Of a stretch of DNA of 64,000 bases, positions 21,880 through 46,942 are shown in pieces. The DNA is from Micromonospora inyonensis. GTDB taxonomy: Bacteria > Actinomycetota > Actinomycetes > Mycobacteriales > Micromonosporaceae. Position numbers and translations under genes: made by a program. Below the pieces are notes generated by a model. The model worked only from the letters and a program-made list of their open reading frames with translations. It was not told the origin of the DNA and made no database searches. Position 1 is the stretch's first letter, and each line of letters starts with the position of its first letter. Location of the stretch: assembly GCF_900091415.1 (NCBI RefSeq), contig NZ_FMHU01000002.1, forward strand, positions 2,108,001 to 2,172,000. Reading direction: 5' to 3'.

Positions 21880-21904
21880 GCCGGACCGGTGTGGACGGTC
21901 CGGC
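21880..21904. terminator. Terminator hairpin between crcB and the SDR pseudogene
   Basis: Perfect 9-bp arms GCCGGACCG and CGGTCCGGC with a 7-nt loop lie between convergent transcription units. The rest of the 223 bp between the crcB stop and the SDR end shows no supportable gene. Confidence 0.65.
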
Positions 21905-21923
21905 GGCGCCCGGTGGACGGTCG

Positions 21924-30294: not shown

Positions 30295-31902
30295 TCACGC
30301 CACCCCGGCGTCACCGGCGCGGGGCAGCGGGGCGTCCGGCGCGGCCAGCAACCGGCGCAGCAGCCGCTGGTAGCGGTCGAGCCAACCGGCTACGGTGCCG
30401 GCGTCGAACAGGTTCGCCGCGTACTCGATGAGCAGCGCCATCCCACCGTCGGGCAGCGGACGGAGCTGCCAGGTCAGGTCCCCCCGCGAGCCGGCCAGCA
30501 CGACGTCGCGGGCCGGGGCCGGTTCCAGGCCGGTCAGGTGCAGCACCGGGTCGGCCATGTCGAGCAGGTCGAAGTAGACGCGGCACGGGAAGTTGGTGAA
30601 CGCCTCGCCGAGCGCCGCGATCTGCACCACCGAGGGCACCGCCTGGCGGGCCAGGGCCTGCCAGGTCACCCCGGCCGTCCGCCGGACCAGTTCGTCGAAG
30701 GACGTCACGCCGACGACCGGGACGAGCAACAGGGCCGCCTGGGCGAAGACTCCCACCACCCGGTCGTACCGGGGATCGGTGCGGTTGGCCACCGAGGCGG
30801 CCAGGTTGACGGTCGGCGCACCGGTCAGGTCGTGCAGCAACCAGACGAAGGCCGCCGTGAACACCGCGTACGGGGTGGCGCCACGACGTACGCCGTATGC
30901 CGTCACCGCCGCGACGAGGTCGGGTGGGAAGGTGTGGTGGAGCACCCCACCGGGGTCGGTGGCGACGGGGACGCGCGGCCGGTCGGTGGGCAGCCGCATC
31001 GGGACGGTGCCGGCAGGAAGCTCGTCGACCCACTCCCGGAGCATTCGACGGGTCTCCGGCCGGGCCAGGTACTCCGCCTCCCACCGGCAGAAGTCGACGA
31101 ACTCGGCGGGCAGCGGCGGCAGGTCGGCGGGGCGACCGTTGACCGCCGCCCGGTAGAACTCCGCCAGGTCGTCCAACATCGGCTGGACCGACCAGCCGTC
31201 GACGAAGCCGTGGTGGATGGCGAGGGCGAACTCGTGCCAGCCGACGGGTGGCCCGGCCGGACCGTCGGTCGGCTGGAACAGCACCGCCCGGAACGCCGGT
31301 TCCCGCTCCAGGGCGAACGGGAGCGAGGCCCACTCGTCGACGACACGGTCGAGTTCGTCCACGGGTACCGTCCGTACCGGCAGCGGCACCGGCCGTGGCG
31401 CGAGCACCTGCTGCCACACCCCGTCGTCCCGGTCCGCGAACCGGGTCCGCAGGGCCGCGTGCCGGACGGTCAGGTCGGCCAGCGCCCGGCGCAGCGCCGT
31501 GACGTCGAGCGGACCGTGCAGCGTCAGCCGGAAGGCGACGGTGAGCACCTGCGGGAAGGAGGTCTCCCGGGTGATCTGGTACTGCCGGGCCTGGCCGATG
31601 CTGGTCGGCGCGGTCACCAGCACCGACCAGTCGTCCCCGCCCCCGTCCCCGGCACCGACGCTGGTGGGCATGGCGGCGTGGCCCGGCCCGGCGGCGCCGT
31701 CCGGCGCGGCGGACGCGCCGTCGGCGCGGAGTCGGTCCAGCAGCACCGGCTTGAGCCGACGCATGGCCGCGATCAGGTCCGCGTCGAGCGCGTCGGCGGG
31801 CGCGTCGTAGTCGAGCTGCCCGCCGCGTACGGCGAGCCGCACGTCCCGGAGGCGCAGCTCGCGCAGCAGGTCGTCCGGATCGGTCGACTCGGGTGCGGTC
31901 AC
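30295..31902 (-). CDS. Stand-alone NRPS condensation protein with TubC-type docking domain
   Basis: 535 aa. Residues 1-60 (LLRELRLRDVRLAVRGGQLD, then DADLIAAMRRLKPVLLDRLR) match the TubC N-terminal docking domain, which recognises the C-terminus of a preceding synthase. A full condensation domain follows with the catalytic motif HHGFVDG. There is no adenylation, carrier or thioesterase domain. The GTG start overlaps the stop of the megasynthase gene (GTGA), so it works as its partner. It probably releases the chain by joining it to a free amine or other nucleophile, or to an acceptor supplied in trans; hydrolytic release cannot be excluded. Confidence 0.88.
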   Translation of the reverse strand: MTAPESTDPDDLLRELRLRDVRLAVRGGQLDYDAPADALDADLIAAMRRLKPVLLDRLRADGASAAPDGAAGPGHAAMPTSVGAGDGGGDDWSVLVTAPTSIGQARQYQITRETSFPQVLTVAFRLTLHGPLDVTALRRALADLTVRHAALRTRFADRDDGVWQQVLAPRPVPLPVRTVPVDELDRVVDEWASLPFALEREPAFRAVLFQPTDGPAGPPVGWHEFALAIHHGFVDGWSVQPMLDDLAEFYRAAVNGRPADLPPLPAEFVDFCRWEAEYLARPETRRMLREWVDELPAGTVPMRLPTDRPRVPVATDPGGVLHHTFPPDLVAAVTAYGVRRGATPYAVFTAAFVWLLHDLTGAPTVNLAASVANRTDPRYDRVVGVFAQAALLLVPVVGVTSFDELVRRTAGVTWQALARQAVPSVVQIAALGEAFTNFPCRVYFDLLDMADPVLHLTGLEPAPARDVVLAGSRGDLTWQLRPLPDGGMALLIEYAANLFDAGTVAGWLDRYQRLLRRLLAAPDAPLPRAGDAGVA

Positions 31903-34900
31903 AACGTCCCCCTGATCCGGGCCGGCTGCGCGGCGGCCCCGGTCGGCTCCGCCCCCGTCTCGCGCAACCGCCGCGCCATCGCCCGTACCGTGGGCGCGCG
32001 CAGGAAGTCCAGCACCCCGATGGTCCCCCCGGTCTCCGCGCGGACCCGGTTGAGCAACCGCATCGCGGTCAGCGACGTGCCTCCCAGCGCGAAGAAGGTG
32101 GTCTCCACCCCGAGCGCGGGCAGGCCCAACTCGGCGCACCAGAGGTCGTGCAGCCGGCGTTCCAGGTCGTCTGCGGGCGGGGTGCCGGTGTCGGCCCACT
32201 CCGCCGACGTCCGGTCCGGCTCCGGCAACGCCGCCCGGTCGATCTTGCCGCTCTCCGTGGCCGGCAGCGCGGGCAGGATCGTCCACGCGGTCGGCACGAG
32301 GTAGTCCGGCAGGCGGGCGGCGAGCTGGCGGGCCAGTTCCGCCGGGTCCACCCCGGGACGGTCGGGAACCACGTACCCGGCCAGGTAGTGCCCGCCCGCA
32401 GGGTCGGCCCAGCCCCGCACCGCCGCGTCCCGTACCCCGTCGAGACGGCGCAGGTGGTGCTCGGGCTCGCCGGGCTCCGCCCGGAAGCCACGGATCTGCA
32501 CCTGGGCGTCGGCGCGGTGCAGGAACTCCAACTGCCCGTCGGGCCGCCACCGGAGCACGTCACCGGTGCGGAAGACCGGACCGTACTCGGGGTGGTGGAG
32601 GAAGCGGGCGGCCGTCTCCTCCGGCAGGTCCAGGTAGCCCCGGCCCAATTGCCGACCGCCGAGGTACGCCTCCCCGGGTACGCCGACCGGGGTCGGCCGG
32701 CCCTCGTCGTCGAGCACCCGGATCCAGGTGCCGGGCACGGGTCGGCCGATCGACGGCGGCTCGTCGGCGCCGGTGGAGCCGTCGAGGTGGACCCAGGTGG
32801 AGACGACGGTCGCCTCGGTCGGCCCGTACACGTTGGTGAGCGTGAACGGCAGGTCCGGCGCGGCCCCCCGGCGCAGCCGGTCGCCACCGACGACGAGGTG
32901 GCGCAGCGCCGGCCGGGGCCCGGCGGACCAGTCCAGGTCGAGCAGCAGTTCCCCCACCGGGGTCGGGAAGAACGCCACGGTGATGCCGTTGTCGACCAGC
33001 CAGTCCCGCAGGCGGACCGGGTCGAGGCGGGCCTCGTCGGGGACCACGTGCAGCGTTGCGCCCGCCCGCAGCGCCGGCCACACCTCCAGGCACGAGGCGT
33101 CGAAGCCGGGGCTACAGAACCAGCTCAGCCGGTCGTCGGCGGTGATGCCGAGGTCGCGGGTGTACCAGGTGACGGTGTTGCTGATCGCCCGGTGCGGGAT
33201 CACGCAGCCCTTGGGGCGTCCGGTGGAGCCGGAGGTGAACAGCACGTACGCCGGGTCGTCCGGCCCGACCACCACCGGATCGGCACCGCCGCCGTGGTCG
33301 GCACCGCCGGCCTCGTCGGCGGTGATCCGGTCCATGTGCAGGGTTCCCGCCGCGCCGGGCAGCGCGGGCAGGCCGGACCGGGACACCACCACGCGTGGCG
33401 CACCCTGCTCGACCACGTCGGCCAGCCGGGCGGTGGGCTGCTCGGGGGCCAGCGGTACGTAGGCCGCACCGGCCCGCAGCGCACCGAGCATCGCGGCGAC
33501 CGCGTCGGCGCTGCGGGGCAGGTGGATGCCGACGAGGTCGCCGGGGACGACGCCCGCCGCGCGCAGCGCCGCGGTCACCGCCTCCGCCCGGCGGCACAGC
33601 TGCGACCCGGTCAACCGCCCGTCCGGACCGACCACGGTGGCCCGGTCGGGACGCAGCAGGGCGGGTAGCGGCGTGTCGGCGCCGGGGGGTGGCGGGCCGC
33701 CGTCCTGCCAGGCCGGATCGGGCAGGGCGCCCTCGGCCGGGTCGACCGGCCCTCGGCGCGTCCGCCCGTTCGACCCGGCGGGATCGGCGTCCCCGTGATG
33801 CGTCCGCCCGTTCGACCCGGCGGGATCGGCGTCCCCGTGATGCGTCCGCCCGTTCGACCCGGCGGGATCGGCGTCCCCGTGATGCGTCCGCCCGTTCGAC
33901 CCGGCGGGATCGGCGTCCCCGCCGGTGGGATGGACCAGCGCGGCGAACGGTTCGTCCGGACGATGCGTGCCGGCCCGCAGCACCGCCACCAGCCGGTCGA
34001 GGAGACGTTGCGCGGTGCCGGGGTCGAACAGGTCGGTGGCGTAGTTGAGCTGGCAGCGCAGCGTGTCCCCGAGGTCGGTGACGAAGAGGGTGAGATCGAA
34101 CGGCGCCCGGCGGACGGCCGCGTCGAGCAGAGTGGACCGGACGTCGGGCAGGTCGAACGCGAAGGCCGGCTGGTTGTCGTACTCGATGACGACGTCGAAC
34201 AGCGGGTGTCGACCGGCCTCGGGTTCCACGCCCAGGGCCCGCGCGATGCGGCCGGCCGGCACGTCACGGTGGTCGTGCGCGTCGAGCAACGCGGTCCGGG
34301 CCGCCCGGACGACGTCGGCGAAACTCGCCCCGGGGGCCACCGACAGACGCAGCGGCAGCGTGGTGACGAACAGTCCGACGGCCTCCTGCGCAGCGGCGGG
34401 GCGGTGCGCGACCGGGGTGCCGAGCAGCACGTCGGGCTGACGGCCGTCGTCGGCGAGGACCGCCGCGAAACCGGCCAGCAGCACCATGAACGGGGTGGCC
34501 CGGTGCCGTCGGCCGGCGTCCCGCACCGCCCGGGCGAGCTGGGCGTCGAGTTCGACGCCGGCGACCGCGCCGGCACCGCTGGGGACGTCCGGACGCCGAC
34601 GGTCGGTCGGCAGCCCGAGCCCGGACGGACGTGACCCGAGCCGGTCCCGCCAGTACGCCGCCTGCGCGTCGACCACCTCCGGCGCGGGTTCCTCCGTGGG
34701 GATCGGCCACGGCGGGGGTGCGGGTAGCTCGGCGGGCCGGCCGGCCAGCGCCGCACGGTAGCCGGCGGCCACCTCCCGGGCCAGCACCTGGGCCGAGAGG
34801 GTGTCGATGACCAGGTGGTGCATACGGAACACGAGCAGGTGCAGCCCCTCGTCCACCCGGACCAGCCGGGGCGCGAACAGCGGGCCACCGGCCAGGTCGA

Positions 34901-37900
34901 ACCGGTGCCGGGTCTCCTCCTCGGCGATCTGCTCGGCGAGGCCGGCCACGTCCCGGCCGGTCGCCTCGTGCACCGGCAGTTCTACCGGGCCGGGCGAACG
35001 CGGCACCAGGCGCGGCTCGCCGTCGACCTCCCGGACCGTGGACCGCAGCGCCGGGTGTCGTCGGACGACGAGGGTCAGGGCGTCGCGCAGGGCGGGCACG
35101 TCGAGCGGACCGTCCAGGCGGACCACCAGGGACTCCGTGTAGGTGGGGCGACCGGGCAGGACCCGCTCGGCGAACCAGATCTCGCGCTGCGCCTCGGTCA
35201 GCGGGCTGGTCTCCTCCGCCGGCCGGTCGACCGTGCGCTCCGCCGCCGGCCCGTCGGGCGCCCCCGACCAGGGGGTCGGCTCCGGTCCCGCCGGACCGTT
35301 CAGGAGCGTGTGCAGCCGCTCGACACCGGGCAGACCGGCCAGCATCCGGCCCGGGGAGAGACCGAAGTCGACGAAGCAGCCGATCTCGTCCACGCCCAGC
35401 GCGGTGAGGCGTTCCACCAGCGACCGGGCCTCCTCCGGGCTGCCGATCAGCGCCCGGTCGGCGGTGTACCGGGCGTAGGCGCGGCGGAGCAGGTAGTCGA
35501 CGTCCTCCGGGGTGGTCGAGTCCAGGTCGATGGTGACACCGAGGCTGTTGGTCACCTGACCGAAGAGGGCCAGCGACGACCGGAGGTAGTCGCAGAACGG
35601 GCCGAACGCCTCCTCGCGGGCCCGGTCGCCGTCCTCGCCGAGGTAGGTGTGCAGCAGCAGGACGATCCGCCCGGCGTCCGGGTCCAGGCCGTGCTCGGCT
35701 CGGGTCGCCCGGTAGAGGGCGATGTTGGCGGCCAGTTGCGCCACGTCCTGGGACATCAGGTTGGTGATGATCCCGAGGTCGGCCGCCGCCGCCCGGCGGT
35801 AGCTGTCCGGGTTGCCCACCACGGCGGTGAACAGGGGCGGCATCGGCTGGACGGGGGGCGGGAAGAGCCGCACCTCGACCGGTTCGCCGTTGCCCGCGGT
35901 ACGGGTGACCGCCTGGCCCTGCCAGAGCCGGCGGATCTGGTCGAGGGACTCGTACATCGCCTCCCGGTGCCGTCCGTACGTCTGCGGGGCGAGCACGAAG
36001 TCGCGGGCGTGCCAGCCGCTGGCGCAGCCGATGCCCACCCGCCCGCGCGACAGGTTGTCCACCACCGACCACTCCTCGGCGACCCGGATCGGGTCGTGCA
36101 GCGGGAGGACGGCGCATCCCGCGTGGATGCGGACCCGGCTGGTACGCGCGGCGACGGCGGCGGCCAGCACCGACGGGTTGGGGAAGATGCCGCCGAACGA
36201 GTCGAAGTGCCGCTCGGGCAGCCACACCGCGTACAGGCCGTGGGTGTCGGCGAAGGTCGCCGCGTCGAGTACGGCGTCGTAGCGGTCCTGGACGTTCTCC
36301 TGCGGGTAGTCGCCGAAGAAGTACAGGCTGACGTCGACCCGCGCCGCCGCCCGTGCACGCACCGGGGACGGCACGACGGCCGGTCCCCGCCCGTTGGCGA
36401 CCGCCGCGCCAGGCGCGGACGGCACGGCGGGAACGGACGGCACGGCAGGAACGGACGGCACGGCGGGAACGGACGGCACGGCAGGAACGGACGGCGGGCC
36501 GGGCAGGAATCCCCCGGCGCGCAGGGCGAGCAGGCTGTCCCGGACGGCCTCGACGATCCGGTCGACGTCGGCGTCGGTGTGCGCGTCGGAGAGGAAGAAG
36601 TTGCGCCACTCCCAGACGTGCACACCGGCCAGCACCAGGTGGTGGAAGAGCAGATCCAGGTTGACCTCGGAGGCGAAGCGGAACAGCGACCCGAAGCGGT
36701 GCACCCGCAGCGGGAAGCCCTCCTCGGCGCAGAACGTGTTCACGGCGTCGGCGAGCCGCTCGGTGCGGCGGTTCAGCCCGTCCTGGAGCGCCGGACCCCG
36801 GTCGCGCAGTTCGGTGAGCACCGCCCGGGCCGCCACCATCGAGAGCGGATGCTGGATGTACGTGCCACCGAAGAAGGTGGTGTCCTGCGGCGGGTAGCTG
36901 TCGTCGCCGTAGCGCCAGAAGCCGCCGTCGACCCAGTCCATGATGTCCGCGCGGCCGGCCACCGCGCCGACCGGATACCCGCCACCGATCACCTTGCCGT
37001 ACGTGGCGAGGTCGGCGCGGACGCCGAAGACGCCCTGCGCGCCCTGCGGGTGCGGACGGAAGCCGGTGAGCATCTCGTCGAAGAGCAGGACCATGCCGTG
37101 CCGGTCGCAGGCGGCGCGCAGCGCGTGGAGGAACTCCGCCGGCTGGCGGTCCGGGTGCCGGCTCTGCACCGGTTCGACGACCACGGCGGCGATCCGGTCG
37201 GCGGACCGCTCGATCGCCGCCAGGCTCTGCGGGTCGTCGTACGGCAAGACCAGGACGTCGGTGACCGCCGAGTCCGGGATGCCGGCCGAGACCGGCACGG
37301 TGCGCCAGGCGTCGCCGTCGCGCACCCCACGGCCCAGCACCGGGTCGATGTGGCCGTGGTACGACCCGGTGAACATGACGATCAGCGGCCGACCGGTGTA
37401 CGCACGGGCCAGCCGGAAGGCCGCCGAGTTGGCCTCGGTGCCGGTGGTGGCGAAGGCGGCCCGGTCCATGCCGGTCAGCTCGCAGAGCAGTTCGGCCGCC
37501 TCACCGGTCTCCTCCCCCCGGGGACCGAGCCGCAGCCCGCCGTCGAGGTGCTCGGCGATCGCCCGGGTGAGGAAGTCCGGCTCGTGACCGAAGAGCAGGG
37601 CCCCGAAGCCCATGGTGATGTCGACGTAGCTGTTGCCGTCGACGTCCTCCAGGTGGGCGCCCCGGGCTCGTCGCGCGGCCAGCGGGTAGAGCAGTTCCTT
37701 GGTGGCGCGGCGGAAACCGACGACGGCCCGGCTGTCGGCCAGCCGCCGCCGGTGCCGCTGGGCCAGCGCCTTGGAGGTCGGGGTCCGCGCGGTGTAGCGA
37801 CGGACCAGGTCGGCGAAGTGCTCCTGCTGACGAGGGTCGAGGCGGCCACCTCCCAGCCCGGCGCCGACCCGGGTGGGCCGGGGGCCGACCTGGGCCGGCA

Positions 37901-40900
37901 CCGTCGCCGGGTCGGTCCGGGCCGAGGAAGCCGGCGCGGAGCTGCCCCCGGACGCCGACCCGACACCCCCGGGCACGGCCGGCGCGGGTACCACCGACGC
38001 GGGCACGGCCGGCGCGGCGGGCACCGACGGGTCGGGCGCGGGGGCGGGCGGCGGGACGGCGGCCAGCGCGGAGAGTTGGCGGGCCATCAGGTCGGTGAAC
38101 TGCCCCATCAACGCGAGTTGACCCCGGAGCAGCTCACCGGCGACGGGATCCCCGGCCACCGGGGCACCGGTCGACGGGGGTACCGGAAGGGCCGCCGACC
38201 CCGGACCGGTGGCCGGGGCTCCGGTGGACCCCTCCGGCACCTCGCCGAGCACGGGCGGCACCACGCCGGACAACGCCGGCGCCCCCACCGGCGCGGCGGG
38301 CCCGGGCGGCACGACGGCGGGCGCGAAAGGCACGGCGGGCGCGAGAGGCACGGCGGCGCGGTCGGGGACGGTCCCCGCACCGGACGGAACGGCCGTCCCC
38401 GGGGCGGCACCACCGGCCACCGCGACGGTCGGCGCAGCGACCTCGGCGGGCATCCCGTCGGCAGCGGGCAGCGCGGCGGCGACCGGCGCGCCCAGCGCGG
38501 CGAGCCGCTCCGGTGCCGCCCGCTCGACGATCGCCGCCGTCAGGCGGCTCGGGCTGTCGAGTTCCTCGAACAGTTCCCGCATCGGGACCCGGATACCGAA
38601 GGTCGTCTCCAGCTCCCGCAGCAGGTTGATCATCAACAGCGAGTCGGCACCGAGGTCGAAGAAGGGCGTCTCCTCCGGTACCCGGTCGACGTCGGTGCCG
38701 AGCTGCTCGGCGGTCAGCTCCCGCACCCGGCGCAGGACGAGCGGGGTGGCGGAAGCCGGGGTGGCGGCCGGGGACATGACGGGACCTCCTGGGACCGGGG
38801 GGTCGGACGGGGCGGACGGCACCGGGCGGGGGACGGCGGCCCAGTGCCGGGTCCGCTGGAACGGGTACGTGGGCAGGGGCACCCGGCGGCCGGTCGGCGC
38901 CAGCGCCGCCCAGTCGACCTCGACGCCCCGGCAGAACAACTCGGCCAACGCGGCCAGCACCTCGGCGGCCCGGTCGGTGCGGCCCCGCTGCACGGGGATC
39001 CACCGGGTCTGCGGCCACTGCCGGCCGAGCATGGCCAGCAGCGCCTCCGGACCCAGCTCCACGAACGTGGTGCAGCCGTCGGCGACCAGTCCCGCGACAC
39101 CCGCGCCGAAGTCCGACCGCTCGCGGGTGTGGCGCCGGACGTGCGTGGCGTCCGGCAGCGTTCCGGGGGCCAGGCGTGCGCCGCCGAGCCCGGTGACGAG
39201 CGGGATCCGCAGCGGTCGCCAGTCGAGGGTGGCGGCGTGCGCCGCGAGATCGTCGAGGACCGGTTCCAGGAACGCGGAGTGGAACGCCCGGTCGGTCGGC
39301 AGCGGTCGGTGCCGGAGGCCGGCGTCGTCGAGCTGCCGCCCGAAGTGGCGCACGGCCGAGGGCGGTCCGGCCACCACGTGCCGGCGCGGCCCGTTGGACA
39401 CGGTCAGCTCGACCTCGGGTGCCCGGCGCAGCAACGGTTCCAGTTCGGCCTCGTCGGCCAGGACGGCGAGCGCCGCGCCCGGTGGCGTACCGCGCTGGAT
39501 CAGCTCGCCGCGCACGGCCGCGAGGTGCAGGCCGTCCTCGACGGAGAGCGCACCGGCCAGGCAGAGTGCGGCGTACTCCCCCGCGCTCTGTCCGATCACG
39601 ACGTCGGGGCGGACGCCGACCGACTCCAGCAGTCGGGCCTGCGCCACCTGGAGGGCGAACAGGGCCGGCTGCACGGTGGCGGTGCTCCACTCGTGCGTCG
39701 CGCCACGCAGCGCCGCCAGCAGGTCGATGCCCCAGTCCTGCCGGTACCGGGCGGCGCAGGTCTCCAGCACCTCACGGGCCGGCTCGTAGGCCAGCAGTCC
39801 GACCGCCGCCGCACGCAGGTCGACCCCCTGCCCGGTGCAGGCGAGGACGACCGGCCCGGGTCCACCGTCGGGGACCACGCCCGCGACCGGGGCGGCCGGG
39901 CTGCCCGCCTCGTCCGGCCGGCTCCGCAGCACCGCCGCCGCCTCGGCCGGGCCGGCCGCCCAGGCCACCAGCCGGTGACGTCGTCGCTGCCGGCCCGCGC
40001 CGAGCGTGACCAGCACGTCCTCGGGGCGCGGCGGGTCGGTGGCGAGCCGGTCGGCCATCCGCTCGGCCAGCGCGGCCAGCGCGGCGGGTGTCTGCGCGGT
40101 CAGTGGCACGACGGTGGGCGCGGCGGGACCGGGGACGGTCGACGGCGCGGGGGCGGCCGGGGGCTCCTCCACCACCACGTGGGCGTTGGTGCCGCCGACA
40201 CCGAGGGACGAGACCCCGGCCCGGCGCGGGCCGGGCACCGGCCACGGCTGGACGGACGTGGGCAGCTGGAACGGCCCGTCGGCCAGGCGGAGTTCGGGGT
40301 TGGGGCGGCGCAGGTTGGCCACCGGTGGGATCCGACCGTGCCGGACCGCCAGCGCCGCCTTGATCAGCCCGGCCATGCCGGCGGCGGTGTCCAGGTGGCC
40401 GATGTTCGCCTTCACCGCGCCGAGCGGCAGCGGGGCGGGACGGTCGGCGAAGACCGTCCGCAGGGCCGCCACCTCGATCGGGTCGCCGATCCGGGTGCCG
40501 GTGCCGTGGGTCTCCAGGTAGCCGATCGACGCGGCGGGCACGCCCGCCACGGCCAGGGCGTCCCGGATCACCCCGGCGTGACCGTCGGCCGTGGGCGCGG
40601 TGTAGCCGCTCTTGGCGGCCCCGTCGTTGTTGACCGCCGAGCCGAGGATCACCGCGTGCACGGTGTCGCCGTCGGCGATCGCGTCGTCGAGGCGCTTGAG
40701 CAGGACGGCCGCGACCCCGTTGCCCCCGACCGTGCCGTCGGCGTCGGCGTCGAAGGCCCGGCAGACGCCGGTGCGGGAGAGGATCGACCCCTCCGCGTGC
40801 CGGTAGCCGGCCACCCGGGGCACATGCAGCGCGGCCGCGCCGGCCAGCGCCAGGTCGGACTCCCCGGCCAGCAGCGACCGTACGGCCAGGTGCACCGCGA

Positions 40901-43900
40901 CCAGCGAGGTGGAGCAGGCCGTCTGCACGCTCAGCGCCGGCCCGGTCAGCCCCAGCCGGTACGCCACCCGGGTGGCCAGGAAGTCGGGCTGGTTGCCGAT
41001 GGTCACCTGCAACGCGGTGAGGTGGGCGACCGGGTCCGTGCCGGCGAGCTGTTCCAGCAGGTAGGAGCGGAGCGAGTAGAGGTGCATGCCGGAGCCGGCG
41101 AAGACCCCGACCCGTCGTCGCGTGCCGGCGTACCCGGCGTCCTCCAGCGCCTCCTGGCAGACCTCGAGGAAGATCCGCTGCTGCGGGTCGGTCAGCGTCG
41201 CCTCGCGCGGGGCGATGCCGAACGCCTCGGCGTCGAAGCTCTCGATGTCGTCGAGCGCGCCGCTGACCGGGACGAACTCCCCGTCGTCGACGAGGGCGGC
41301 GGGCCAGCCGGCGGCGAGCAGTTCGGCGCGGTCGAACCGGCGCACGTCGACCTGCCCGGCGAGCAGGTTGCGCCAGTACCGGTCGGCGGTGTCGGCGCCG
41401 GGCAGACGCAACGCCATGCCGACGATCGCGATCCGCCCGTCGCCCGGGGCCCGTGCGCCGGTGGCGCCGCCGGTCGGGGCCGCCGATCCGGCCAGCAGGT
41501 CCACCAGGTACGCCACCAGCGCGGCCGGTGTGCCGTGGGTGAACAGGGCGGTCTGCGGGAAGCGCGTGTCCAGTGCCTGTTGCAGCAGGGTGTGCAGGCG
41601 CAGCAGGCGTACCGAGTCGAGGCCGGCGTCGTGGAACGCCGTACGGTCCTCGATTCCGGCGGGCAACGCCTGGCGCAGCACCTCCCGGACGGTGCGGGCC
41701 ACGGTCAGCGGGTCCCGGGCCGGTGCGCCGGAGGCCGGAGCCGACCGGGGCTGGGGTTCGGACGACGCCGCCGGGGCCGGCGCGGAGGGTCGGGCCGGGA
41801 CGGGCGGCGGTGACGGTGCGGCGGGGGTGGCCGCCGCGGACCGGGCCTCCGGCAGCGGCCGGCTCTCCGGGTCACCGGCCGCTGCCGCCGGCGCTTGCGG
41901 GTCGTCCGGCGCCACCAGCGCCGGAGTCCCGAACACGTCCACCGGGGCCGGTGCGGGGGTCCCCGACCCGTCCACCGGATCCGGCGCGGTGACCGCCTCC
42001 AACGGCCGGACGGGTCGCACCAGGTGCCGGACGCGCGGCGCGTCCGGGTCGATGCCGGCGAGGAGGTGCCCCGGCGGCAGGCGCAGCGCCACCCGGGTCA
42101 GCGCGAGTCCCTCGGTGGCGGAGAGGGTCCGCAGATGGCGGCGGGTGGCCTGCTCGACGCCGCCCCGGGTGGCGCTCATCCCGACGCCGCGCCACATTCC
42201 CCAGCTCACGCACTGCACGGGCCGTTCGGTGCCCAGGTGCGCGCAGAGCGCCTCGAGGAAGGCGTTGCCGGCCGCGTAGCCGCCCGTGCCGACCACCGGC
42301 ACCAGCGCCAGCAGGGACGAGAACGCCACCAGACGGGCCCCCGGCCGGTGCCGCAGCAGGCGGGCCACCTGTACCGAACCGTCCACCTTGGCCGCCGCGC
42401 CGGCACGCCACCGGCGGGGATCGATCTCGGTCAGCGGGGCCTGGTGGTAGTCACCGGCGAGGTGCAGCACCCCGTCCAACGGCGCCTGCCACTCCCGCTC
42501 GGCGACGTCGACCGCGGCCCGCAGGGCAGCACCGTCGGTGACGTCGGCAACGTCGTAGCGCACCCGTCCCGTGCCGCCCGCGAGGTCCGCCACGGCGGCG
42601 GAGACCTGCGCCGCCGGCTTCCGGCCGACCACGAGCAGGTGCAGGTCGAGGTCGGCGGCGAGCCGGCCCAGCACGGCCCGGGACACTCCGCCGAGGCCGC
42701 CGGTGACGAGCCAGCGGGTGCCCGGCGGGACCACCGGCCCGTCACCGGTGGTGACGTCGGGAGCGTCGACCCGGTGCAGGGTGCGGACAAGCGGGCCGTC
42801 CCGCCAGGCCACGACGTTCTCCCGGTGCCGCCAACCGGTCGCCGCCGCGAGGACGGCGGCGTCGGCGGTCACGTCCGGGCCGGGCAGGTCGAGGTGCCAG
42901 GTGCGGACGTCGGGGTGCTCGACGCCGAAGGTCTCGCCGAGGCTGGCCGTGAGCGCGGCCGGATAGCAGCCCGGTTCGTCGCCCCGGATGCGGTACAGGC
43001 CCCGGCTGACGGTCAGCAGGGTGCCCGTCCAGCCGACCTCGGCAAGCGTCCGGATCAGGTGCAGAAGGTGGGTGCCGCAGGTCTCGACGGCGGCGTCGAC
43101 GGCCGCCGCGTCGTCCGGGTCGGGGGCCGGCAGGTAGCTGGGGGCGAAGACGACCAGCGCGGGCGTCCGGTCCGGTGCGACGAGCGCGTCGCGCAGACTG
43201 GCGGGGCCGCCGTCCGCCTCCGGCGGGCCCGTCGGCGCGCCGTCCCCGGCGGCGGTCAGGCCGTCGACGAGCACGACGTCGGGCAGCGCGTCGCGCAGCG
43301 CCGTGGCGAGTCCGAGCCGGTCGGTGACCACGAGCACCGGTCCGGGTGGCGGGTCGACGCTCATCGTCCGGGGTGCCCAGGCCGGGCGGTGCAGGCAGTC
43401 GGGGATGGTGTCCGGGCCCGCCTCCAGCAGGTCGGCACGGCGTTCCGCGGCGGCGTACCCGCCGTCGAGCAGGCGGGCCCGCATGCTGCTGCGCTGGATC
43501 TTGCCGCTGGTGGTCTTCTCGAACCGGTCGCGCTCGACGGGGACCAGGCGGGCGGTGGCGATCTGCATCCGGTCGGCCAGGCGGCGGCGGACCCGGGTCA
43601 GCAGGGCCGTGTCCGGTTCGCCCTCGGCGACGAGGAGCACCACGATCTGCTCGGTGCCGTCGGCGTCCGGCGCGCCGACCGCCGCGACGAAGCTCGCCGC
43701 GACACCGTCGACGTCGCCCACCACGTCCTCGATGTCGTGGCAGAAGTAGTGAACGCCGTTGACGATGATGACCTCTTTACCGCGCCCGGTGATGGTCAGC
43801 CGGCCGTCGGCCAGGAAGGCGAGGTCGCCGGTGTCGAACCAGTCGCCGTCGGGGAAGGCCGCCCGGTTGGCCTCGTCGTTGCCGAGGTAGCCCGGGGTGA

Positions 43901-45575
43901 CCCGCACCGACCGGACCTGGAGCCGGCCGATGTGCCGGTCCGGCAGGGCGGTGGTGCCGTCCGGGGCGGTGATCCGGAACTGCGCGCCGGGGGCGGCGGG
44001 GCCCATGCTGAGGAAGCCGGTGACGCCGGGACCCGGGGCGTCGCGCAGGGTCACCCGGATGCCGTCGGCGGCGAGTTCCACGTGCTGTACCGCCGAGGCG
44101 ACGGCCGGCTGGTAGCTGATCGCCGTACAGGTCTCGGCCATTCCCCAGGCCAGCAGCAGGGCGTCCGGTTCGATGCCGAAGCCGCGCACGTCGGCCAGGA
44201 ACTGCCGGGCCACCGGTACGGTGCACTGCTCACCGGCGTTGACCAGGCTCCGGACGTGCCGCAGGTCCCAGGTGCTCTCCGGCCGCGTCCGCAGCGCCTC
44301 GGAGACGAGCTTGTACCCGAAGTTCGGTGACCAGCTGTGCTGGATCCGGTGGCGCTCCAGCAGGTCGAGCCAGAGCAGCGGGTCGGCGAGCACCAGGGCG
44401 GTGGCGACGTGGGTGGTGCCGCAGCCGAGCACGACCGGGCCGATGTGCATCATGACGATCCCGGCCACGTGGTCCAGCGGCAGCCAGTTGAGCACCTCGT
44501 CCCCGGCGCGCATCCGGCCGACCTGCCGGGCGCCCCGGGCGTAGTCGACGATGCCCCGGTGGGTCATCGGGATGACCTTCGACCGGCTGGTGCTGCCGGA
44601 GGAGAGTTGGAGCATCGCCACGTCCCGCGGTTCCGGCCGGTGCAGGTCGGCGGCGGGCGGATGGTCGCGGCAGTCGGCGACGTCGAGCACCCGCATCCCG
44701 TCCAGGCCGTGCCGGTCGGCGTACCGCGTCAGCGCGGCCACGGTGCCGTCCCCGGAGAGCACCGGGGGCCGGTCCAGGCCGCGCCAGGCGTGCTCCAGCT
44801 TGTCCAACGTGGCGTTGCGGTCGGTGTAGCCGGGGGCCTGGGCGACCGCCACGGCGTGCAGGCCGCCGATCAGGCAGGCCCAGAGCGCGACGCAGTGGTC
44901 GAGCAGGGAGGGCATGTGCAGGATCACCGGGTCGCCGGCGGCCAGGCCGGCGGCGCGCAGGCCGGTCAGCGTCCGTCGGGCGGCGGCGAGCAGGTCGGGG
45001 TACGGCAGCAACCGGGTGCCGTCCTCCTCGACGACCCGCAGGCCCCGGGTGGGCCACTGTTCCGCGACCCGGACCAGGGCCTCGGGCAGCGTCTCCGGGT
45101 CGTCGGGGTGGGCGATGGTCGCCGGGCCCTCGGCGACGGCCGGTGGTCCGTCCGGTGGTGGCGGGGTGTCCGGTGCGGTGGCGTGGGACGCGGTGGGCGT
45201 CGTCGCCCACCGGGCGGGGAGGTCGATCAGGTCGGCCAGGTGTCGCCGCTCCGCCGTCGCCGCCGCCGGCCGGACCGGGGCCCCGACGGTGCCGGCGACC
45301 GGCAGCGCCGCCAGCGCGGCCCCGTCCGGGGTGCCGTCGGCGGTGCGGGGGATGCCGGAGACCACGGCCACGGTCACCGGCGGTGCGGCCCGCTCCCGCC
45401 GGGCCACGGCGACCGCCTCGGCGGCCCGCCGGGCCCGGAGCGGGGGCACCGTGGCGGCGGGCACCACGTAGGCGATCCGCCGGACGCGTCCGTCGTGAGC
45501 GGTCCGGTCGAGCACGGCGGCATCGACGATCTCGGCGCGGCCGGTCAGGGCCCCGATCAGGTCGTCCACGGTCAT
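31899..45575 (-). CDS. Hybrid polyketide/non-ribosomal peptide megasynthase (AL-KR-ACP-KS-AT-ACP-AMT-LLM-C-A-PCP)
   Basis: 4558 aa; ATG 45575 has GAGGAG upstream and overlaps the MFS stop (ATGA). Domains in order: acyl-AMP ligase about 160-705 (SSGSTSRSKVIPMTH, TTSGKIQRS); ketoreductase 720-1180 (TGGLGGVSR, Ser, GGYAAGN); ACP Ser near 1321; KS 1385-1810 (TACSTS, HGTGT, NIGHLD); AT 1895-2235 (GQSAGEYAA, RAFHS suggests malonyl); ACP Ser near 2312; Ala/Pro linker; class III aminotransferase 2575-3010 (PLP Lys in TYGKVIGGG); luciferase-like monooxygenase 3075-3425; C 3450-3880 (HHLVIDT); A 3960-4440 (FTSGSTGRPKG, NVYGPTE); PCP Ser near 4502. The chain is started, reduced, extended once, beta-aminated, probably alpha-hydroxylated, then joined to one amino acid. 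Residues 1-110 resemble a loose ligase lid. Confidence 0.92.
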   Translation of the reverse strand: MTVDDLIGALTGRAEIVDAAVLDRTAHDGRVRRIAYVVPAATVPPLRARRAAEAVAVARRERAAPPVTVAVVSGIPRTADGTPDGAALAALPVAGTVGAPVRPAAATAERRHLADLIDLPARWATTPTASHATAPDTPPPPDGPPAVAEGPATIAHPDDPETLPEALVRVAEQWPTRGLRVVEEDGTRLLPYPDLLAAARRTLTGLRAAGLAAGDPVILHMPSLLDHCVALWACLIGGLHAVAVAQAPGYTDRNATLDKLEHAWRGLDRPPVLSGDGTVAALTRYADRHGLDGMRVLDVADCRDHPPAADLHRPEPRDVAMLQLSSGSTSRSKVIPMTHRGIVDYARGARQVGRMRAGDEVLNWLPLDHVAGIVMMHIGPVVLGCGTTHVATALVLADPLLWLDLLERHRIQHSWSPNFGYKLVSEALRTRPESTWDLRHVRSLVNAGEQCTVPVARQFLADVRGFGIEPDALLLAWGMAETCTAISYQPAVASAVQHVELAADGIRVTLRDAPGPGVTGFLSMGPAAPGAQFRITAPDGTTALPDRHIGRLQVRSVRVTPGYLGNDEANRAAFPDGDWFDTGDLAFLADGRLTITGRGKEVIIVNGVHYFCHDIEDVVGDVDGVAASFVAAVGAPDADGTEQIVVLLVAEGEPDTALLTRVRRRLADRMQIATARLVPVERDRFEKTTSGKIQRSSMRARLLDGGYAAAERRADLLEAGPDTIPDCLHRPAWAPRTMSVDPPPGPVLVVTDRLGLATALRDALPDVVLVDGLTAAGDGAPTGPPEADGGPASLRDALVAPDRTPALVVFAPSYLPAPDPDDAAAVDAAVETCGTHLLHLIRTLAEVGWTGTLLTVSRGLYRIRGDEPGCYPAALTASLGETFGVEHPDVRTWHLDLPGPDVTADAAVLAAATGWRHRENVVAWRDGPLVRTLHRVDAPDVTTGDGPVVPPGTRWLVTGGLGGVSRAVLGRLAADLDLHLLVVGRKPAAQVSAAVADLAGGTGRVRYDVADVTDGAALRAAVDVAEREWQAPLDGVLHLAGDYHQAPLTEIDPRRWRAGAAAKVDGSVQVARLLRHRPGARLVAFSSLLALVPVVGTGGYAAGNAFLEALCAHLGTERPVQCVSWGMWRGVGMSATRGGVEQATRRHLRTLSATEGLALTRVALRLPPGHLLAGIDPDAPRVRHLVRPVRPLEAVTAPDPVDGSGTPAPAPVDVFGTPALVAPDDPQAPAAAAGDPESRPLPEARSAAATPAAPSPPPVPARPSAPAPAASSEPQPRSAPASGAPARDPLTVARTVREVLRQALPAGIEDRTAFHDAGLDSVRLLRLHTLLQQALDTRFPQTALFTHGTPAALVAYLVDLLAGSAAPTGGATGARAPGDGRIAIVGMALRLPGADTADRYWRNLLAGQVDVRRFDRAELLAAGWPAALVDDGEFVPVSGALDDIESFDAEAFGIAPREATLTDPQQRIFLEVCQEALEDAGYAGTRRRVGVFAGSGMHLYSLRSYLLEQLAGTDPVAHLTALQVTIGNQPDFLATRVAYRLGLTGPALSVQTACSTSLVAVHLAVRSLLAGESDLALAGAAALHVPRVAGYRHAEGSILSRTGVCRAFDADADGTVGGNGVAAVLLKRLDDAIADGDTVHAVILGSAVNNDGAAKSGYTAPTADGHAGVIRDALAVAGVPAASIGYLETHGTGTRIGDPIEVAALRTVFADRPAPLPLGAVKANIGHLDTAAGMAGLIKAALAVRHGRIPPVANLRRPNPELRLADGPFQLPTSVQPWPVPGPRRAGVSSLGVGGTNAHVVVEEPPAAPAPSTVPGPAAPTVVPLTAQTPAALAALAERMADRLATDPPRPEDVLVTLGAGRQRRRHRLVAWAAGPAEAAAVLRSRPDEAGSPAAPVAGVVPDGGPGPVVLACTGQGVDLRAAAVGLLAYEPAREVLETCAARYRQDWGIDLLAALRGATHEWSTATVQPALFALQVAQARLLESVGVRPDVVIGQSAGEYAALCLAGALSVEDGLHLAAVRGELIQRGTPPGAALAVLADEAELEPLLRRAPEVELTVSNGPRRHVVAGPPSAVRHFGRQLDDAGLRHRPLPTDRAFHSAFLEPVLDDLAAHAATLDWRPLRIPLVTGLGGARLAPGTLPDATHVRRHTRERSDFGAGVAGLVADGCTTFVELGPEALLAMLGRQWPQTRWIPVQRGRTDRAAEVLAALAELFCRGVEVDWAALAPTGRRVPLPTYPFQRTRHWAAVPRPVPSAPSDPPVPGGPVMSPAATPASATPLVLRRVRELTAEQLGTDVDRVPEETPFFDLGADSLLMINLLRELETTFGIRVPMRELFEELDSPSRLTAAIVERAAPERLAALGAPVAAALPAADGMPAEVAAPTVAVAGGAAPGTAVPSGAGTVPDRAAVPLAPAVPFAPAVVPPGPAAPVGAPALSGVVPPVLGEVPEGSTGAPATGPGSAALPVPPSTGAPVAGDPVAGELLRGQLALMGQFTDLMARQLSALAAVPPPAPAPDPSVPAAPAVPASVVPAPAVPGGVGSASGGSSAPASSARTDPATVPAQVGPRPTRVGAGLGGGRLDPRQQEHFADLVRRYTARTPTSKALAQRHRRRLADSRAVVGFRRATKELLYPLAARRARGAHLEDVDGNSYVDITMGFGALLFGHEPDFLTRAIAEHLDGGLRLGPRGEETGEAAELLCELTGMDRAAFATTGTEANSAAFRLARAYTGRPLIVMFTGSYHGHIDPVLGRGVRDGDAWRTVPVSAGIPDSAVTDVLVLPYDDPQSLAAIERSADRIAAVVVEPVQSRHPDRQPAEFLHALRAACDRHGMVLLFDEMLTGFRPHPQGAQGVFGVRADLATYGKVIGGGYPVGAVAGRADIMDWVDGGFWRYGDDSYPPQDTTFFGGTYIQHPLSMVAARAVLTELRDRGPALQDGLNRRTERLADAVNTFCAEEGFPLRVHRFGSLFRFASEVNLDLLFHHLVLAGVHVWEWRNFFLSDAHTDADVDRIVEAVRDSLLALRAGGFLPGPPSVPAVPSVPAVPSVPAVPSVPAVPSAPGAAVANGRGPAVVPSPVRARAAARVDVSLYFFGDYPQENVQDRYDAVLDAATFADTHGLYAVWLPERHFDSFGGIFPNPSVLAAAVAARTSRVRIHAGCAVLPLHDPIRVAEEWSVVDNLSRGRVGIGCASGWHARDFVLAPQTYGRHREAMYESLDQIRRLWQGQAVTRTAGNGEPVEVRLFPPPVQPMPPLFTAVVGNPDSYRRAAAADLGIITNLMSQDVAQLAANIALYRATRAEHGLDPDAGRIVLLLHTYLGEDGDRAREEAFGPFCDYLRSSLALFGQVTNSLGVTIDLDSTTPEDVDYLLRRAYARYTADRALIGSPEEARSLVERLTALGVDEIGCFVDFGLSPGRMLAGLPGVERLHTLLNGPAGPEPTPWSGAPDGPAAERTVDRPAEETSPLTEAQREIWFAERVLPGRPTYTESLVVRLDGPLDVPALRDALTLVVRRHPALRSTVREVDGEPRLVPRSPGPVELPVHEATGRDVAGLAEQIAEEETRHRFDLAGGPLFAPRLVRVDEGLHLLVFRMHHLVIDTLSAQVLAREVAAGYRAALAGRPAELPAPPPWPIPTEEPAPEVVDAQAAYWRDRLGSRPSGLGLPTDRRRPDVPSGAGAVAGVELDAQLARAVRDAGRRHRATPFMVLLAGFAAVLADDGRQPDVLLGTPVAHRPAAAQEAVGLFVTTLPLRLSVAPGASFADVVRAARTALLDAHDHRDVPAGRIARALGVEPEAGRHPLFDVVIEYDNQPAFAFDLPDVRSTLLDAAVRRAPFDLTLFVTDLGDTLRCQLNYATDLFDPGTAQRLLDRLVAVLRAGTHRPDEPFAALVHPTGGDADPAGSNGRTHHGDADPAGSNGRTHHGDADPAGSNGRTHHGDADPAGSNGRTRRGPVDPAEGALPDPAWQDGGPPPPGADTPLPALLRPDRATVVGPDGRLTGSQLCRRAEAVTAALRAAGVVPGDLVGIHLPRSADAVAAMLGALRAGAAYVPLAPEQPTARLADVVEQGAPRVVVSRSGLPALPGAAGTLHMDRITADEAGGADHGGGADPVVVGPDDPAYVLFTSGSTGRPKGCVIPHRAISNTVTWYTRDLGITADDRLSWFCSPGFDASCLEVWPALRAGATLHVVPDEARLDPVRLRDWLVDNGITVAFFPTPVGELLLDLDWSAGPRPALRHLVVGGDRLRRGAAPDLPFTLTNVYGPTEATVVSTWVHLDGSTGADEPPSIGRPVPGTWIRVLDDEGRPTPVGVPGEAYLGGRQLGRGYLDLPEETAARFLHHPEYGPVFRTGDVLRWRPDGQLEFLHRADAQVQIRGFRAEPGEPEHHLRRLDGVRDAAVRGWADPAGGHYLAGYVVPDRPGVDPAELARQLAARLPDYLVPTAWTILPALPATESGKIDRAALPEPDRTSAEWADTGTPPADDLERRLHDLWCAELGLPALGVETTFFALGGTSLTAMRLLNRVRAETGGTIGVLDFLRAPTVRAMARRLRETGAEPTGAAAQPARIRGTL
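33758..33920. repeat. Perfect 42-bp tandem repeat, 3.9 units, in the C-A linker
   Basis: Units at 33758, 33800, 33842 and 33884 are identical over their length (the fourth lacks 5 bp). On the coding strand each codes for the 14 residues DADPAGSNGRTHHG. The lack of any difference points to recent expansion and to likely length variation between strains. Confidence 0.92.
36421..36492. repeat. Four 18-bp repeats in the AMT-LLM linker
   Basis: GGCACGGCRGGAACGGAC occurs four times in a row, with R alternating G, A, G, A. The array is therefore also two 36-bp units. It codes for PSVPAV repeats, a Pro/Val/Ala spacer between the aminotransferase and the monooxygenase. Confidence 0.9.
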
Positions 45576-46942
45576 CGTCCACTCTCCTCGACCGGGTTCG
45601 TCACGGCGACGGTCGGGCCGGTGGCCACGGGCACGGTGCCGCCGTTCGTGGCGGTGGGACGGGCGCGGTGGCGAAGCGCGCCGGCCAGGGCGACCGCGAC
45701 GGCCAGGGCGACCACGGTGCCGTGCATGGCCGCCGCCACCGGCAGCGGTCGCCACAGTTCGAGCAGGCCGGCGGCGAGCAGCATGCCCACGCCCAGTCCC
45801 CCGTTCTCGGCCATCGCGGTCGCGCCGAAGAAGTACCCACGCCGCGGGTCGGGTTCGGCCTGGAGCCGGGTGGTGTAGCTGATCTCGGTGAAGCCGTCGG
45901 CGGCGCCGGCGACCAGCGCCACCGCGAACACCCAGTAGCCGGGCAGGTCGACGAAGGCCGCGACGAAGGCGGTCGACATCACGCAGGTGCCGACGATGAA
46001 GGCCAGTTCGCTGCGGCGCGGGTCGTCCAGCCCCGGTCCCCGCCGGTTGAGCCGCTTGACCAGCTGGTGGGCGGTGAGCAGGCCGACGGCCCAGACGGCG
46101 AAGAAGTTGCCCACGAAGGCAGCCGGATCCTCCGGTCGCACCTGGGTCGCGTAGATCGGCAGGCCGACGTTGTGGGAGGCGGACCCGAGCGCGTCGGCGG
46201 CACGGACCACCACGATGACCAGGACGGCCGGCGCGGCCAACAGCGCGGCGAGCGCCAGCCGGCGTCGCCGCCGGCCGTCCGGGCGGTCGGCGGCGTCGGT
46301 CACCGGCTCGCCCGACCGGTCGGCGGCGTCGGTCACCGACCCGGCCGGGCGGGTCCGGTGGTTCGGGAACGGCAACGGCAGCGCGGCCAGCAGCAGGCCG
46401 GAGAAGAGGAACGTCCCCGCGTCCACCAGGAACGCCGCCCGGTAGCCCAGCCAGCCGACCAGCAGGCCACCGGCGGCGAAGCCGAGCGTCATCGCGACGG
46501 CCCGGCCGGTGACCAGCAGTCCGTTGGCGGTGACCCGGTCGGGACCGGGGACCAGGTCGGGGACGCTGCTGCGCAGCAGCACCGAGGAGGTGGTGCCGAG
46601 CAGCCCGCCGGCCACCGCGACGACCGGGAGCAGGCCCAGGCGGACCGAGGCGGGGCTGACCGCCAGCGCGACGAGCGCGGCGGCCTGGGGCAGGTCGCAG
46701 GCGACCATCACCGGGCGACGCGGCAGTCGGGACGCGACGGTGCCCCCGGTCAGGCCGGCGAGGAAGCCGGCGGCCAGTCGCAGGGCCATGAAGGCGCCGG
46801 TCTGCAGGGCGCTGCCGGTGGCCTGGTAGACGAAGAGGTTGAGCGCCACCATGTTGAGGTAGCTGCCGAACGCCGAGACCGAGGTGCCGACGACGAGCAG
46901 CCGGAACAGCACCAGGTGTCGGGGGGTACGGGTCTCCGGCAT
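45572..46942 (-). CDS. Major facilitator superfamily exporter
   Basis: 456 aa with about 12 membrane helices in two halves (LLVVGTSVSAFGSYLNMVAL at the start, GGTVASRLPRRPVMVAC as the loop 2-3 motif) and a long, charged central loop with the duplicated segment VTDAADR. It resembles MFS_3/enterobactin exporter-type proteins. The ATGA overlap with the megasynthase makes product export or self-protection its likely role. ATG 46942 starts the first helix region; an in-frame ATG at 47026 would add 28 mostly polar residues. Neither has a clear ribosome site. Confidence 0.85.
   Translation of the reverse strand: MPETRTPRHLVLFRLLVVGTSVSAFGSYLNMVALNLFVYQATGSALQTGAFMALRLAAGFLAGLTGGTVASRLPRRPVMVACDLPQAAALVALAVSPASVRLGLLPVVAVAGGLLGTTSSVLLRSSVPDLVPGPDRVTANGLLVTGRAVAMTLGFAAGGLLVGWLGYRAAFLVDAGTFLFSGLLLAALPLPFPNHRTRPAGSVTDAADRSGEPVTDAADRPDGRRRRRLALAALLAAPAVLVIVVVRAADALGSASHNVGLPIYATQVRPEDPAAFVGNFFAVWAVGLLTAHQLVKRLNRRGPGLDDPRRSELAFIVGTCVMSTAFVAAFVDLPGYWVFAVALVAGAADGFTEISYTTRLQAEPDPRRGYFFGATAMAENGGLGVGMLLAAGLLELWRPLPVAAAMHGTVVALAVAVALAGALRHRARPTATNGGTVPVATGPTVAVTNPVEESGR

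What the first reader, a model, noticed from the sequence alone, without database searches (positions are those of the whole stretch)
31899..45575. A one-protein assembly line with microginin-like logic and a ketoreductase in its loading module
The order acyl-AMP ligase, KR, ACP, KS, AT, ACP, class III aminotransferase, luciferase-like monooxygenase, C, A, PCP is read directly from the motifs. Established knowledge: in microginin-type pathways an aminotransferase acts on the beta-keto intermediate and a monooxygenase hydroxylates the alpha carbon, giving a 3-amino-2-hydroxy acid typical of metalloprotease inhibitors. Inference: this actinobacterial enzyme makes a related aminoacyl peptide. The KR between ligase and first ACP is unusual. 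It recalls the reductive loading module of rapamycin (ligase-ER-ACP) and the A-KR-T modules of depsipeptides, so the starter may be a keto acid reduced before extension. I know of no described pathway with exactly this order.
Basis: partly seen in the sequence, partly recalled or inferred. Interest (0 to 1): 0.9.

Follow-up and report, generated by a model that had tools for sequence, protein, structure and literature searches.

The report
Keto-acid-primed microginin-like assembly line
A giant actinobacterial enzyme appears to start from a keto acid, reduce it, lengthen it by one unit, add an amino and a hydroxyl group and join it to an amino acid, so it may make a protease-inhibitor-like peptide whose identity is not known.

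Summary
ORF 31899-45575 (minus strand, 4558 aa) carries eleven domains in the stated order, and 28 of 46 database hits share it (23 with every domain detected). One label is wrong. The first domain is not a fatty acyl-AMP ligase: by sequence it is an alpha-keto-acid-type adenylation domain of the StsA/McyG/antimycin-AntC kind, with both published StsA hallmarks in 29 of 29 family members. A KR beside such a domain is expected: it is an A-KR-T initiation module. Best reading: keto acid loaded and reduced to a hydroxy acid, one malonyl extension, beta-amination, alpha-hydroxylation, one amino acid, then release by a separate or fused terminal C domain. The predicted residue is a 3-amino-2,4-dihydroxy acid. 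The unit looks like a three-gene operon: MFS exporter, synthase, lone C. The logic is partly known: antimycin (A-KR-T then KS-AT), microginin (aminotransferase, hydroxylase), and cyanobacterial Athmu lines (keto-A-KR loading, aminotransferase, oxygenase). I found no description of this single-extension actinobacterial version in ten literature searches. Two sister architectures turned up: one without KR and AMT, one without a loading domain. Product, starter and stereochemistry are not shown.

The parts
31899..45575 (-). megasynthase, 4558 aa: A(keto)-KR-ACP-KS-AT-ACP-AMT-LLM-C-A-PCP
43461..45083 (-). A1, alpha-keto-acid-type adenylation domain (residues 165-705)
   Evidence: PDB search: McyG 4r0m 326 bits, StsA 6ulx 324 bits, FAAL 3pbk 145 bits; hallmark residues
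42741..43424 (-). KR structural (N-terminal) half, residues 718-945
   Evidence: position before the KR; PDB matches to KR chains reach into it; no Pfam hit of its own
41976..42740 (-). KR catalytic half, residues 946-1200
   Evidence: PF08659; catalytic K/S/Y/N
41502..41723 (-). ACP1 (residues 1285-1358)
   Evidence: PF00550, three stretches in the protein; sequence GLDSV; bounds set by eye
40026..41453 (-). ketosynthase (residues 1375-1850)
   Evidence: active-site TACSTS
38826..39863 (-). acyltransferase (residues 1905-2250), RAFH motif
   Evidence: that this motif means malonyl is recalled
38520..38753 (-). ACP2 (residues 2275-2352)
36516..37808 (-). class III aminotransferase (residues 2590-3020), PLP lysine in ATYGKVIGG
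   Evidence: the lysine's role is recalled
35301..36344 (-). luciferase-like monooxygenase (residues 3078-3425)
   Evidence: TIGR04020
33936..35228 (-). condensation domain, HHLVIDT motif (residues 3450-3880)
32226..33683 (-). A2, amino-acid adenylation domain (residues 3965-4450), 10-residue code read as DALFVGVVVK
   Evidence: the code positions are recalled from GrsA
31941..32168 (-). PCP (residues 4470-4545)
   Evidence: bounds set by eye
30295..31902 (-). lone C protein, 535 aa, TubC_N docking domain plus C domain (HHGFVDG); its start overlaps the stop of the megasynthase
   Evidence: a related terminal C is fused to the synthase in 4 of 8 genomes
45572..46942 (-). MFS exporter; its stop overlaps the ATG of the megasynthase (its own start codon is a guess)
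   Evidence: sequence; present upstream in 8 of 8 genomes

Best explanation
This is a one-protein PKS-NRPS line started by an A-KR-T keto-acid module. A1 activates an alpha-keto acid from primary metabolism and loads it on ACP1. The KR reduces it to an alpha-hydroxyacyl thioester. KS-AT-ACP2 adds one malonyl unit. The aminotransferase turns the beta-keto into a beta-amino group and the luciferase-like monooxygenase hydroxylates the alpha carbon. This gives a 3-amino-2,4-dihydroxyacyl unit, which C-A2-PCP couples to one amino acid. The lone (or fused) terminal C domain then releases the chain onto an amine, an amino acid or an internal nucleophile, and the MFS protein exports it. Shown here: domains, order, residues, gene overlaps, conservation. 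Inferred: the operon and every chemical step. Not resolved: which keto acid, which amino acid, what the terminal C transfers to.
For: A1 matches McyG and StsA at 326 and 324 bits and a FAAL at 145. It has a hydrophobic residue where amino-acid A domains have Asp235 and Gly-Met where they have Gly-Pro, the StsA hallmarks (PMC11253843, passages), in 29 of 29 family members. KR tetrad: K 29, Y 29, N 29, S 27 (T 2) of 29; no type-A Trp and no type-B LDD in the family rows. Family KRs (19 rows) fall with 12 A-KR-T KRs on one side of a branch of SH-aLRT 99, away from 31 PKS KRs. AntC does the same two steps (A2-KR-T2 on pyruvate, then AntD KS-AT-ACP; PMC3869250 passages), and a locus with antimycin-type genes came up as a relative (L066). 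AMT keeps its lysine in 27 of 29. Athmu lines pair AMT and oxygenase to give 3-amino-2-hydroxy (PMC13252402 passages). In 8 genomes, 13-26 kb past the synthase, domain queries found no A, carrier or AntD-like TE, only the lone C in 4 and, in G176, weak AMT- and LLM-like hits far off.
Against: By pairwise PDB search the KR scores higher to PKS beta-KRs (Lsd14, 85 bits) than to the StsA KR (56.5 bits). McyG, the other top A1 match, was solved with L-Phe-AMP, so the clade is not strictly keto-acid. In 6 of 14 sister (Type II) A1 domains the hydrophobic hallmark is Ser. In two family members (P0011, P0013) the AMT has lost its N-terminal part and the lysine, so beta-amination is not universal. A free gamma-hydroxyl could lactonise on ACP2 before condensation. 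No product is known.
Confidence: 0.7

Rival explanations
1. A1 loads an alpha-hydroxy or aryl-propanoid acid as such, and the KR is idle in the cis role or works on another intermediate (for example in trans on a beta-keto chain).
For: McyG, an equally good A1 match, was solved with L-Phe-AMP; Type II relatives carry the same kind of A1 without any KR found, so this A1 type does not need one; KR scores highest to beta-KRs in PDB.
Against: KR tetrad conserved in 27-29 of 29; KR sits before ACP1, not between AT and ACP2; KR and A1 occur together in all 10 AMT loci with a keto-type A1 and neither was found in 44.
Confidence: 0.15
2. The luciferase-like monooxygenase does something other than alpha-hydroxylation (for example N-oxidation or Baeyer-Villiger insertion).
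For: The model name (TIGR04020) gives no reaction; Type II lines keep the LLM without AMT.
Against: Its place next to the aminotransferase is that of the oxygenase credited with 3-amino-2-hydroxy formation in Athmu lines.
Confidence: 0.2
3. The chain leaves early as a 3-amino-2-hydroxy-gamma-butyrolactone because the gamma-hydroxyl attacks the ACP2 thioester; the downstream NRPS part acts on little or nothing.
For: Chemistry only: a 4-hydroxyacyl thioester is set up for five-ring closure (inference).
Against: C-A-PCP and terminal C are conserved with active-site motifs; a C hit follows the PCP in 65 of 68 loci tested.
Confidence: 0.1
4. One reading: a fatty acyl-AMP ligase starts the line and the KR is a stray insertion.
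For: NCBIfam lists fatty-acyl ligases among its matches.
Against: The two that match in the A1 region (PRK07768, PRK09192) are below their cut-offs (304.7 of 572; 270.2 of 600); FAAL 3pbk has Asp and Gly-Leu where this family has Val and Gly-Met.
Confidence: 0.04

Closest known systems
Antimycin AntC module 2 plus AntD (A2-KR-T2, then KS-AT-ACP-TE)
   Same: keto-acid A domain, KR, carrier, then one KS-AT-ACP extension of the hydroxyacyl unit; KRs of this type fall on the same side of the tree
   Different: in antimycin it is an internal module after C domains; no AMT, no LLM; release by TE (PMC3869250 passages)
Cyanobacterial Athmu lines (floridanemamide, pahayokolide-like, portoamide)
   Same: keto-acid A with KR in the loading module, PKS, aminotransferase, oxygenase, NRPS (PMC13252402 passages)
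   Different: there two beta-ketoreducing KR domains add further steps, so the amine is far from the starter hydroxyl; many NRPS residues; TE in its figure legend; local isopropylmalate genes; other phylum. Here one extension puts amine next to the starter hydroxyl. I did not align its sequences
Microginin mic line
   Same: KS-AT-ACP followed by aminotransferase (PMC12250027 passages) and monooxygenase (recalled); 3-amino-2-hydroxy acid then amino acids
   Different: FAAL loads octanoate, two to six NRPS modules, thioesterase (PMC12250027 passages); no loading KR (recalled)
StsA A-KR-T initiation module (cereulide-type)
   Same: A1 sequence and hallmark residues; A-KR-T order
   Different: NRPS without PKS, AMT or LLM (recalled); KR only weakly alike (56.5 bits)
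McyG A-PCP of microcystin
   Same: A1 sequence (326 bits); 6 of 9 pocket positions equal
   Different: solved as an A-T didomain, no KR between

Membership tests
A-KR-T keto-acid module | A domain of keto-acid type (no Asp235 equivalent, Gly-Met not Gly-Pro) | tested here: met
   29 of 29; criteria from PMC11253843 passages
A-KR-T keto-acid module | KR between A and carrier with intact catalytic residues | tested here: met
A-KR-T keto-acid module | KR groups with alpha-keto-reducing KRs rather than PKS beta-KRs | tested here: inconclusive
   tree says yes (99), pairwise PDB search says no; no KR of proven alpha-keto activity was in the tree by name
A-KR-T keto-acid module | activates and reduces a keto acid | not testable with these tools
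   needs enzyme assay
Microginin-type beta-amino-alpha-hydroxy PKS | KS-AT-ACP followed by GSA-type aminotransferase with PLP lysine | tested here: met
Microginin-type beta-amino-alpha-hydroxy PKS | LLM monooxygenase next to AMT | tested here: met
   TIGR04020 454.6 bits
Microginin-type beta-amino-alpha-hydroxy PKS | fatty acyl-AMP ligase start | tested here: not met
Athmu-type line | keto-A-KR loading with AMT and oxygenase | tested here: met
   definition from PMC13252402 passages
Athmu-type line | further beta-reducing PKS modules before AMT | tested here: not met
   only one KS-AT in the protein
Fatty acyl-AMP ligase | FAAL-like sequence and pocket residues | tested here: not met
Antimycin-type cluster | AntC with two C-A modules, 3-aminosalicylate genes, TE | tested here: not met
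   synthase has another order and no TE; no such genes among the 18 other neighbours scanned

The most novel reading that the evidence does not exclude
A conserved actinobacterial family makes peptides headed by a contiguous hydroxy-amino-hydroxy (3-amino-2,4-dihydroxy) acid, by aminating directly beside a reduced keto-acid starter, and ends without a thioesterase on a coupled terminal C domain. I know of no described bacterial line that makes this residue in this way (recall, plus the paper searches listed).
Probability: 0.45. Interest if true: 0.65.

Novelty: new variant of a known kind. Interest (0 to 1): 0.5.

Why it matters
Alpha-hydroxy-beta-amino acids are the zinc-binding head of bestatin- and microginin-like peptidase inhibitors (recalled). 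A compact three-gene unit that predicts a more hydroxylated head is a cheap target for heterologous expression, and the three sister architectures (keto-A plus KR plus AMT; keto-A alone; no loading domain) form a natural series to test what loading, reduction and amination each contribute. The third form occurs in dozens of Streptomyces records with no product that I could find.

Tried and rejected
FAAL start: rejected on PDB match and hallmark residues. KR as a remnant: rejected on its conserved tetrad. Product identification: ten paper searches were made; aimed at a product or cluster of this kind, 30, 34 and 44 at keto-acid A-KR modules, McyG and AntC. None listed a characterised cluster with this order; I saw listings and starts of abstracts, and opened five papers (PMC11253843, PMC3869250, PMC6117356 and PMC12250027 by passages; PMC13252402 by abstract, outline and passages). 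The library holds open-licence PMC papers only, and MIBiG and antiSMASH are not on hand. A homologue search with the loading module alone (best 120 of 130 shown) gave other A-KR-T proteins, among them Sorangium and Streptomyces, but none whose listed name gives a product. N-terminal 169 residues against PDB: nothing. Amino-acid prediction of A2: the code DALFVGVVVK is near no code I recall with certainty, so no residue is claimed. No structure prediction was run: Pfam and NCBIfam scores settle the KR and LLM identity.

Rows dropped: KR tree, 19 family rows used, the other family rows left out to thin it; KS+LLM tree, 8 P rows and 3 loci left out, and four rows labelled Type III there (L072, L076, L078, L121) are contigs cut before or inside the loading module, so their label means 'not seen'; A1 tree, 9 rows left out. 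The trees are quick searches with SH-aLRT only.

Full report
What is there. The frame 31899-45575 (minus) encodes 4558 aa. Its ATG overlaps the stop of an MFS gene upstream and its stop overlaps the GTG of a 535-aa gene downstream, so three genes are probably read as one operon (sequence; ORFs; Pfam). Pfam and NCBIfam give A-KR-ACP-KS-AT-ACP-AMT-LLM-C-A-PCP. The downstream protein is a TubC_N docking domain plus a C domain with HHGFVDG. Of the 18 other neighbour genes scanned, none matched a carrier, C, A, KS or PF00975 thioesterase model; one, at 21790-22785, is a short-chain dehydrogenase.

It is a family. A search with residues 600-1350 gave 46 proteins; 28 (P0001-P0028) map to the same order. 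All eleven domains were picked up in 23; BLAST did not pick up ACP1 in 4 (P0021, P0022, P0023, P0027), P0024 ends after C, and the KR structural half was not picked up in 8. In 12 of the 28 an extra C domain is fused at the C-terminus. Names given by the sources include Micromonospora, Winogradskya, Symbioplanes, Actinosynnema, Actinokineospora, Saccharothrix, Amycolatopsis, Kitasatospora and Streptomyces. In the window's own family, 39 of 354 genomes hold a relative of A1 at E <= 1e-90, and 11 genomes (the window's own among them) hold one that is at least 65% identical. In a class-wide sample 9 of 394 genomes, the own one included, hold such a relative at E <= 1e-90; these were not sorted by architecture.

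Neighbourhood. I read 8 of those 11 genomes (of the other three, one was fetched as a cut contig and two were not fetched). The MFS gene lies upstream in 8 of 8 (alone showed 7, because one gene was split between two stretches) and the synthase is in 8 of 8. The lone C protein is separate in 4 and a related C is fused in the other 4. No other gene cluster is shared by more than three of the eight. With the domain queries and one antimycin-type TE as query, no A, carrier, KS or TE hit was found in the 13 to 26 kb past the synthase in any of the eight; beyond the lone C there were only a second, weak MFS hit in G214 and a weak LLM hit in G176. On the upstream side G176 has a weak aminotransferase hit and G156 has another PKS-NRPS on the other strand. 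So no special starter gene is shared, and the keto acid should come from primary metabolism (inference), and release should fall to the terminal C (inference).

The first domain. Against solved structures A1 scores 326 bits to McyG, 324 to StsA and 145 to the best true FAAL. StsA, a keto-acid A domain, has Ile in place of Asp235 and Gly-Met in place of Gly-Pro (review PMC11253843, passages). The family has Val and Gly-Met in 29 of 29; the FAAL has Asp and Gly-Leu. Pocket positions agree with McyG at 6 of 9. This is a keto-acid-type adenylation domain by sequence; its substrate is untested. In the sister Type II lines Gly-Met is kept in 14 of 14, but 6 of 14 have Ser where the family has Val.

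The KR. K, Y and N are kept in 29 of 29, S in 27 (Thr in 2); no type-A Trp and no type-B LDD appears in the family rows (the motif rules are recalled). In a tree of 62 KRs, 19 family and 12 A-KR-T rows lie on one side of a branch of support 99 and 31 PKS rows on the other; all rows came from searches with this protein, so the PKS sample is not a neutral one. Against this reading, the pairwise PDB search ranks a PKS beta-KR (85 bits) above the StsA KR (56.5 bits). The nearest characterised kind is antimycin AntC, whose A2-KR-T2 loads pyruvate, reduces it and passes it to the KS-AT-ACP of AntD (PMC3869250, passages). A relative found here (L066) has antimycin-type neighbours: KS-AT-ACP-TE, zinc reductase, AMP ligase, ACP, a PapA-like acyltransferase; that it is an antimycin cluster is inference.

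The tailoring pair. The aminotransferase is of the glutamate-semialdehyde kind with its lysine, and the LLM is of the MupA/Atu3671 family. In cyanobacterial Athmu lines a keto-acid A domain with a loading KR, PKS modules, an aminotransferase and a monooxygenase are reported to give a 3-amino-2-hydroxy acid with a starter hydroxyl (PMC13252402, a 2026 preprint; abstract, outline and passages). That is the closest logic I found. The difference is spacing: here one extension only, so amine and starter hydroxyl are neighbours.

Relatives that differ. Of 20 stretches fetched, 14 are a sister form A1-ACP-KS-AT-ACP-LLM-C-A-PCP-C in which no KR or AMT was found (ACP1 was not picked up in every one, and L057 is cut at the end of its stretch), two are stand-alone A-KR proteins, two are NRPS-type C-A-KR-T, one is the family cut at a contig end and one is flank only. 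An AMT-based scan kept the best 80 of 171 loci; of the 55 with at least 9 kb before the AMT, 10 have A1 and KR, in 44 neither was found, and one (cyanobacterial, ligase at 26%) has a ligase without KR. Most of the 44 are Streptomyces. I called genes in 7 such loci: 5 show a gene of about 1100 aa followed by one of about 2400-2600 aa, two are split otherwise. Pfam on L082 gives KS-AT-ACP and AMT-LLM-C-A-PCP with two C domains, and the gene before is an MFS gene in L082 and L117. A C hit follows the PCP in 65 of 68 loci where it could be looked for; the misses are L073, L123 and L150, though one search lists a C after the PCP in L073 and L123. In the KS+LLM tree the forms are largely apart, but the branch that sets off Type II has support of only 47, four cut contigs and L080 break the labels, and the root is a midpoint. 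In P0011 and P0013 the AMT has lost part of its N-terminus and the lysine.

Judgement. The finding is real and its order is right. Its loading ligase is mislabelled, and this removes most of the stated oddity. What is left is a conserved actinobacterial variant, undescribed as far as I could search, that joins two known modules and should yield an unusual amino-diol acid. The lack of a description rests on ten searches of open-licence papers and not on MIBiG.

Noticed in passing
L051-L058, L061-L065, L067: Sister lines with the same kind of A1 but no KR or AMT found, ending in a C domain: A1-ACP-KS-AT-ACP-LLM-C-A-PCP-C (14 loci).
   Followed up: partly
L082, L117, L147 and other Streptomyces loci: KS-AT-ACP and AMT-LLM-C-A-PCP-C without a loading domain in reach, after an MFS gene where checked (L082, L117); many Streptomyces records.
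   Followed up: partly
proteins P0011 and P0013: Aminotransferase domain has lost its N-terminal part and the PLP lysine while the rest of the line is kept.
   Followed up: partly
window 33758-33921: A 42-bp unit repeated 3.9 times with 100% identity in the C-A2 linker of the synthase.
   Followed up: no
L059 and L060: Stand-alone A-KR proteins (ACP seen in L060); in L060 beside a PF00797 N-acetyltransferase-like gene, an O-methyltransferase, a P450 and an EryCIII-like glycosyltransferase.
   Followed up: partly
L079: A 5.4-kb contig from an Archangium MAG carries AMT-LLM-C-A at 67% AMT identity; a myxobacterial copy or a mis-binned contig.
   Followed up: no
window 55769-57226 and 59315-60157: IS110-type and IS4/5-type transposase genes on the plus strand, upstream of the synthase genes.
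   Followed up: no
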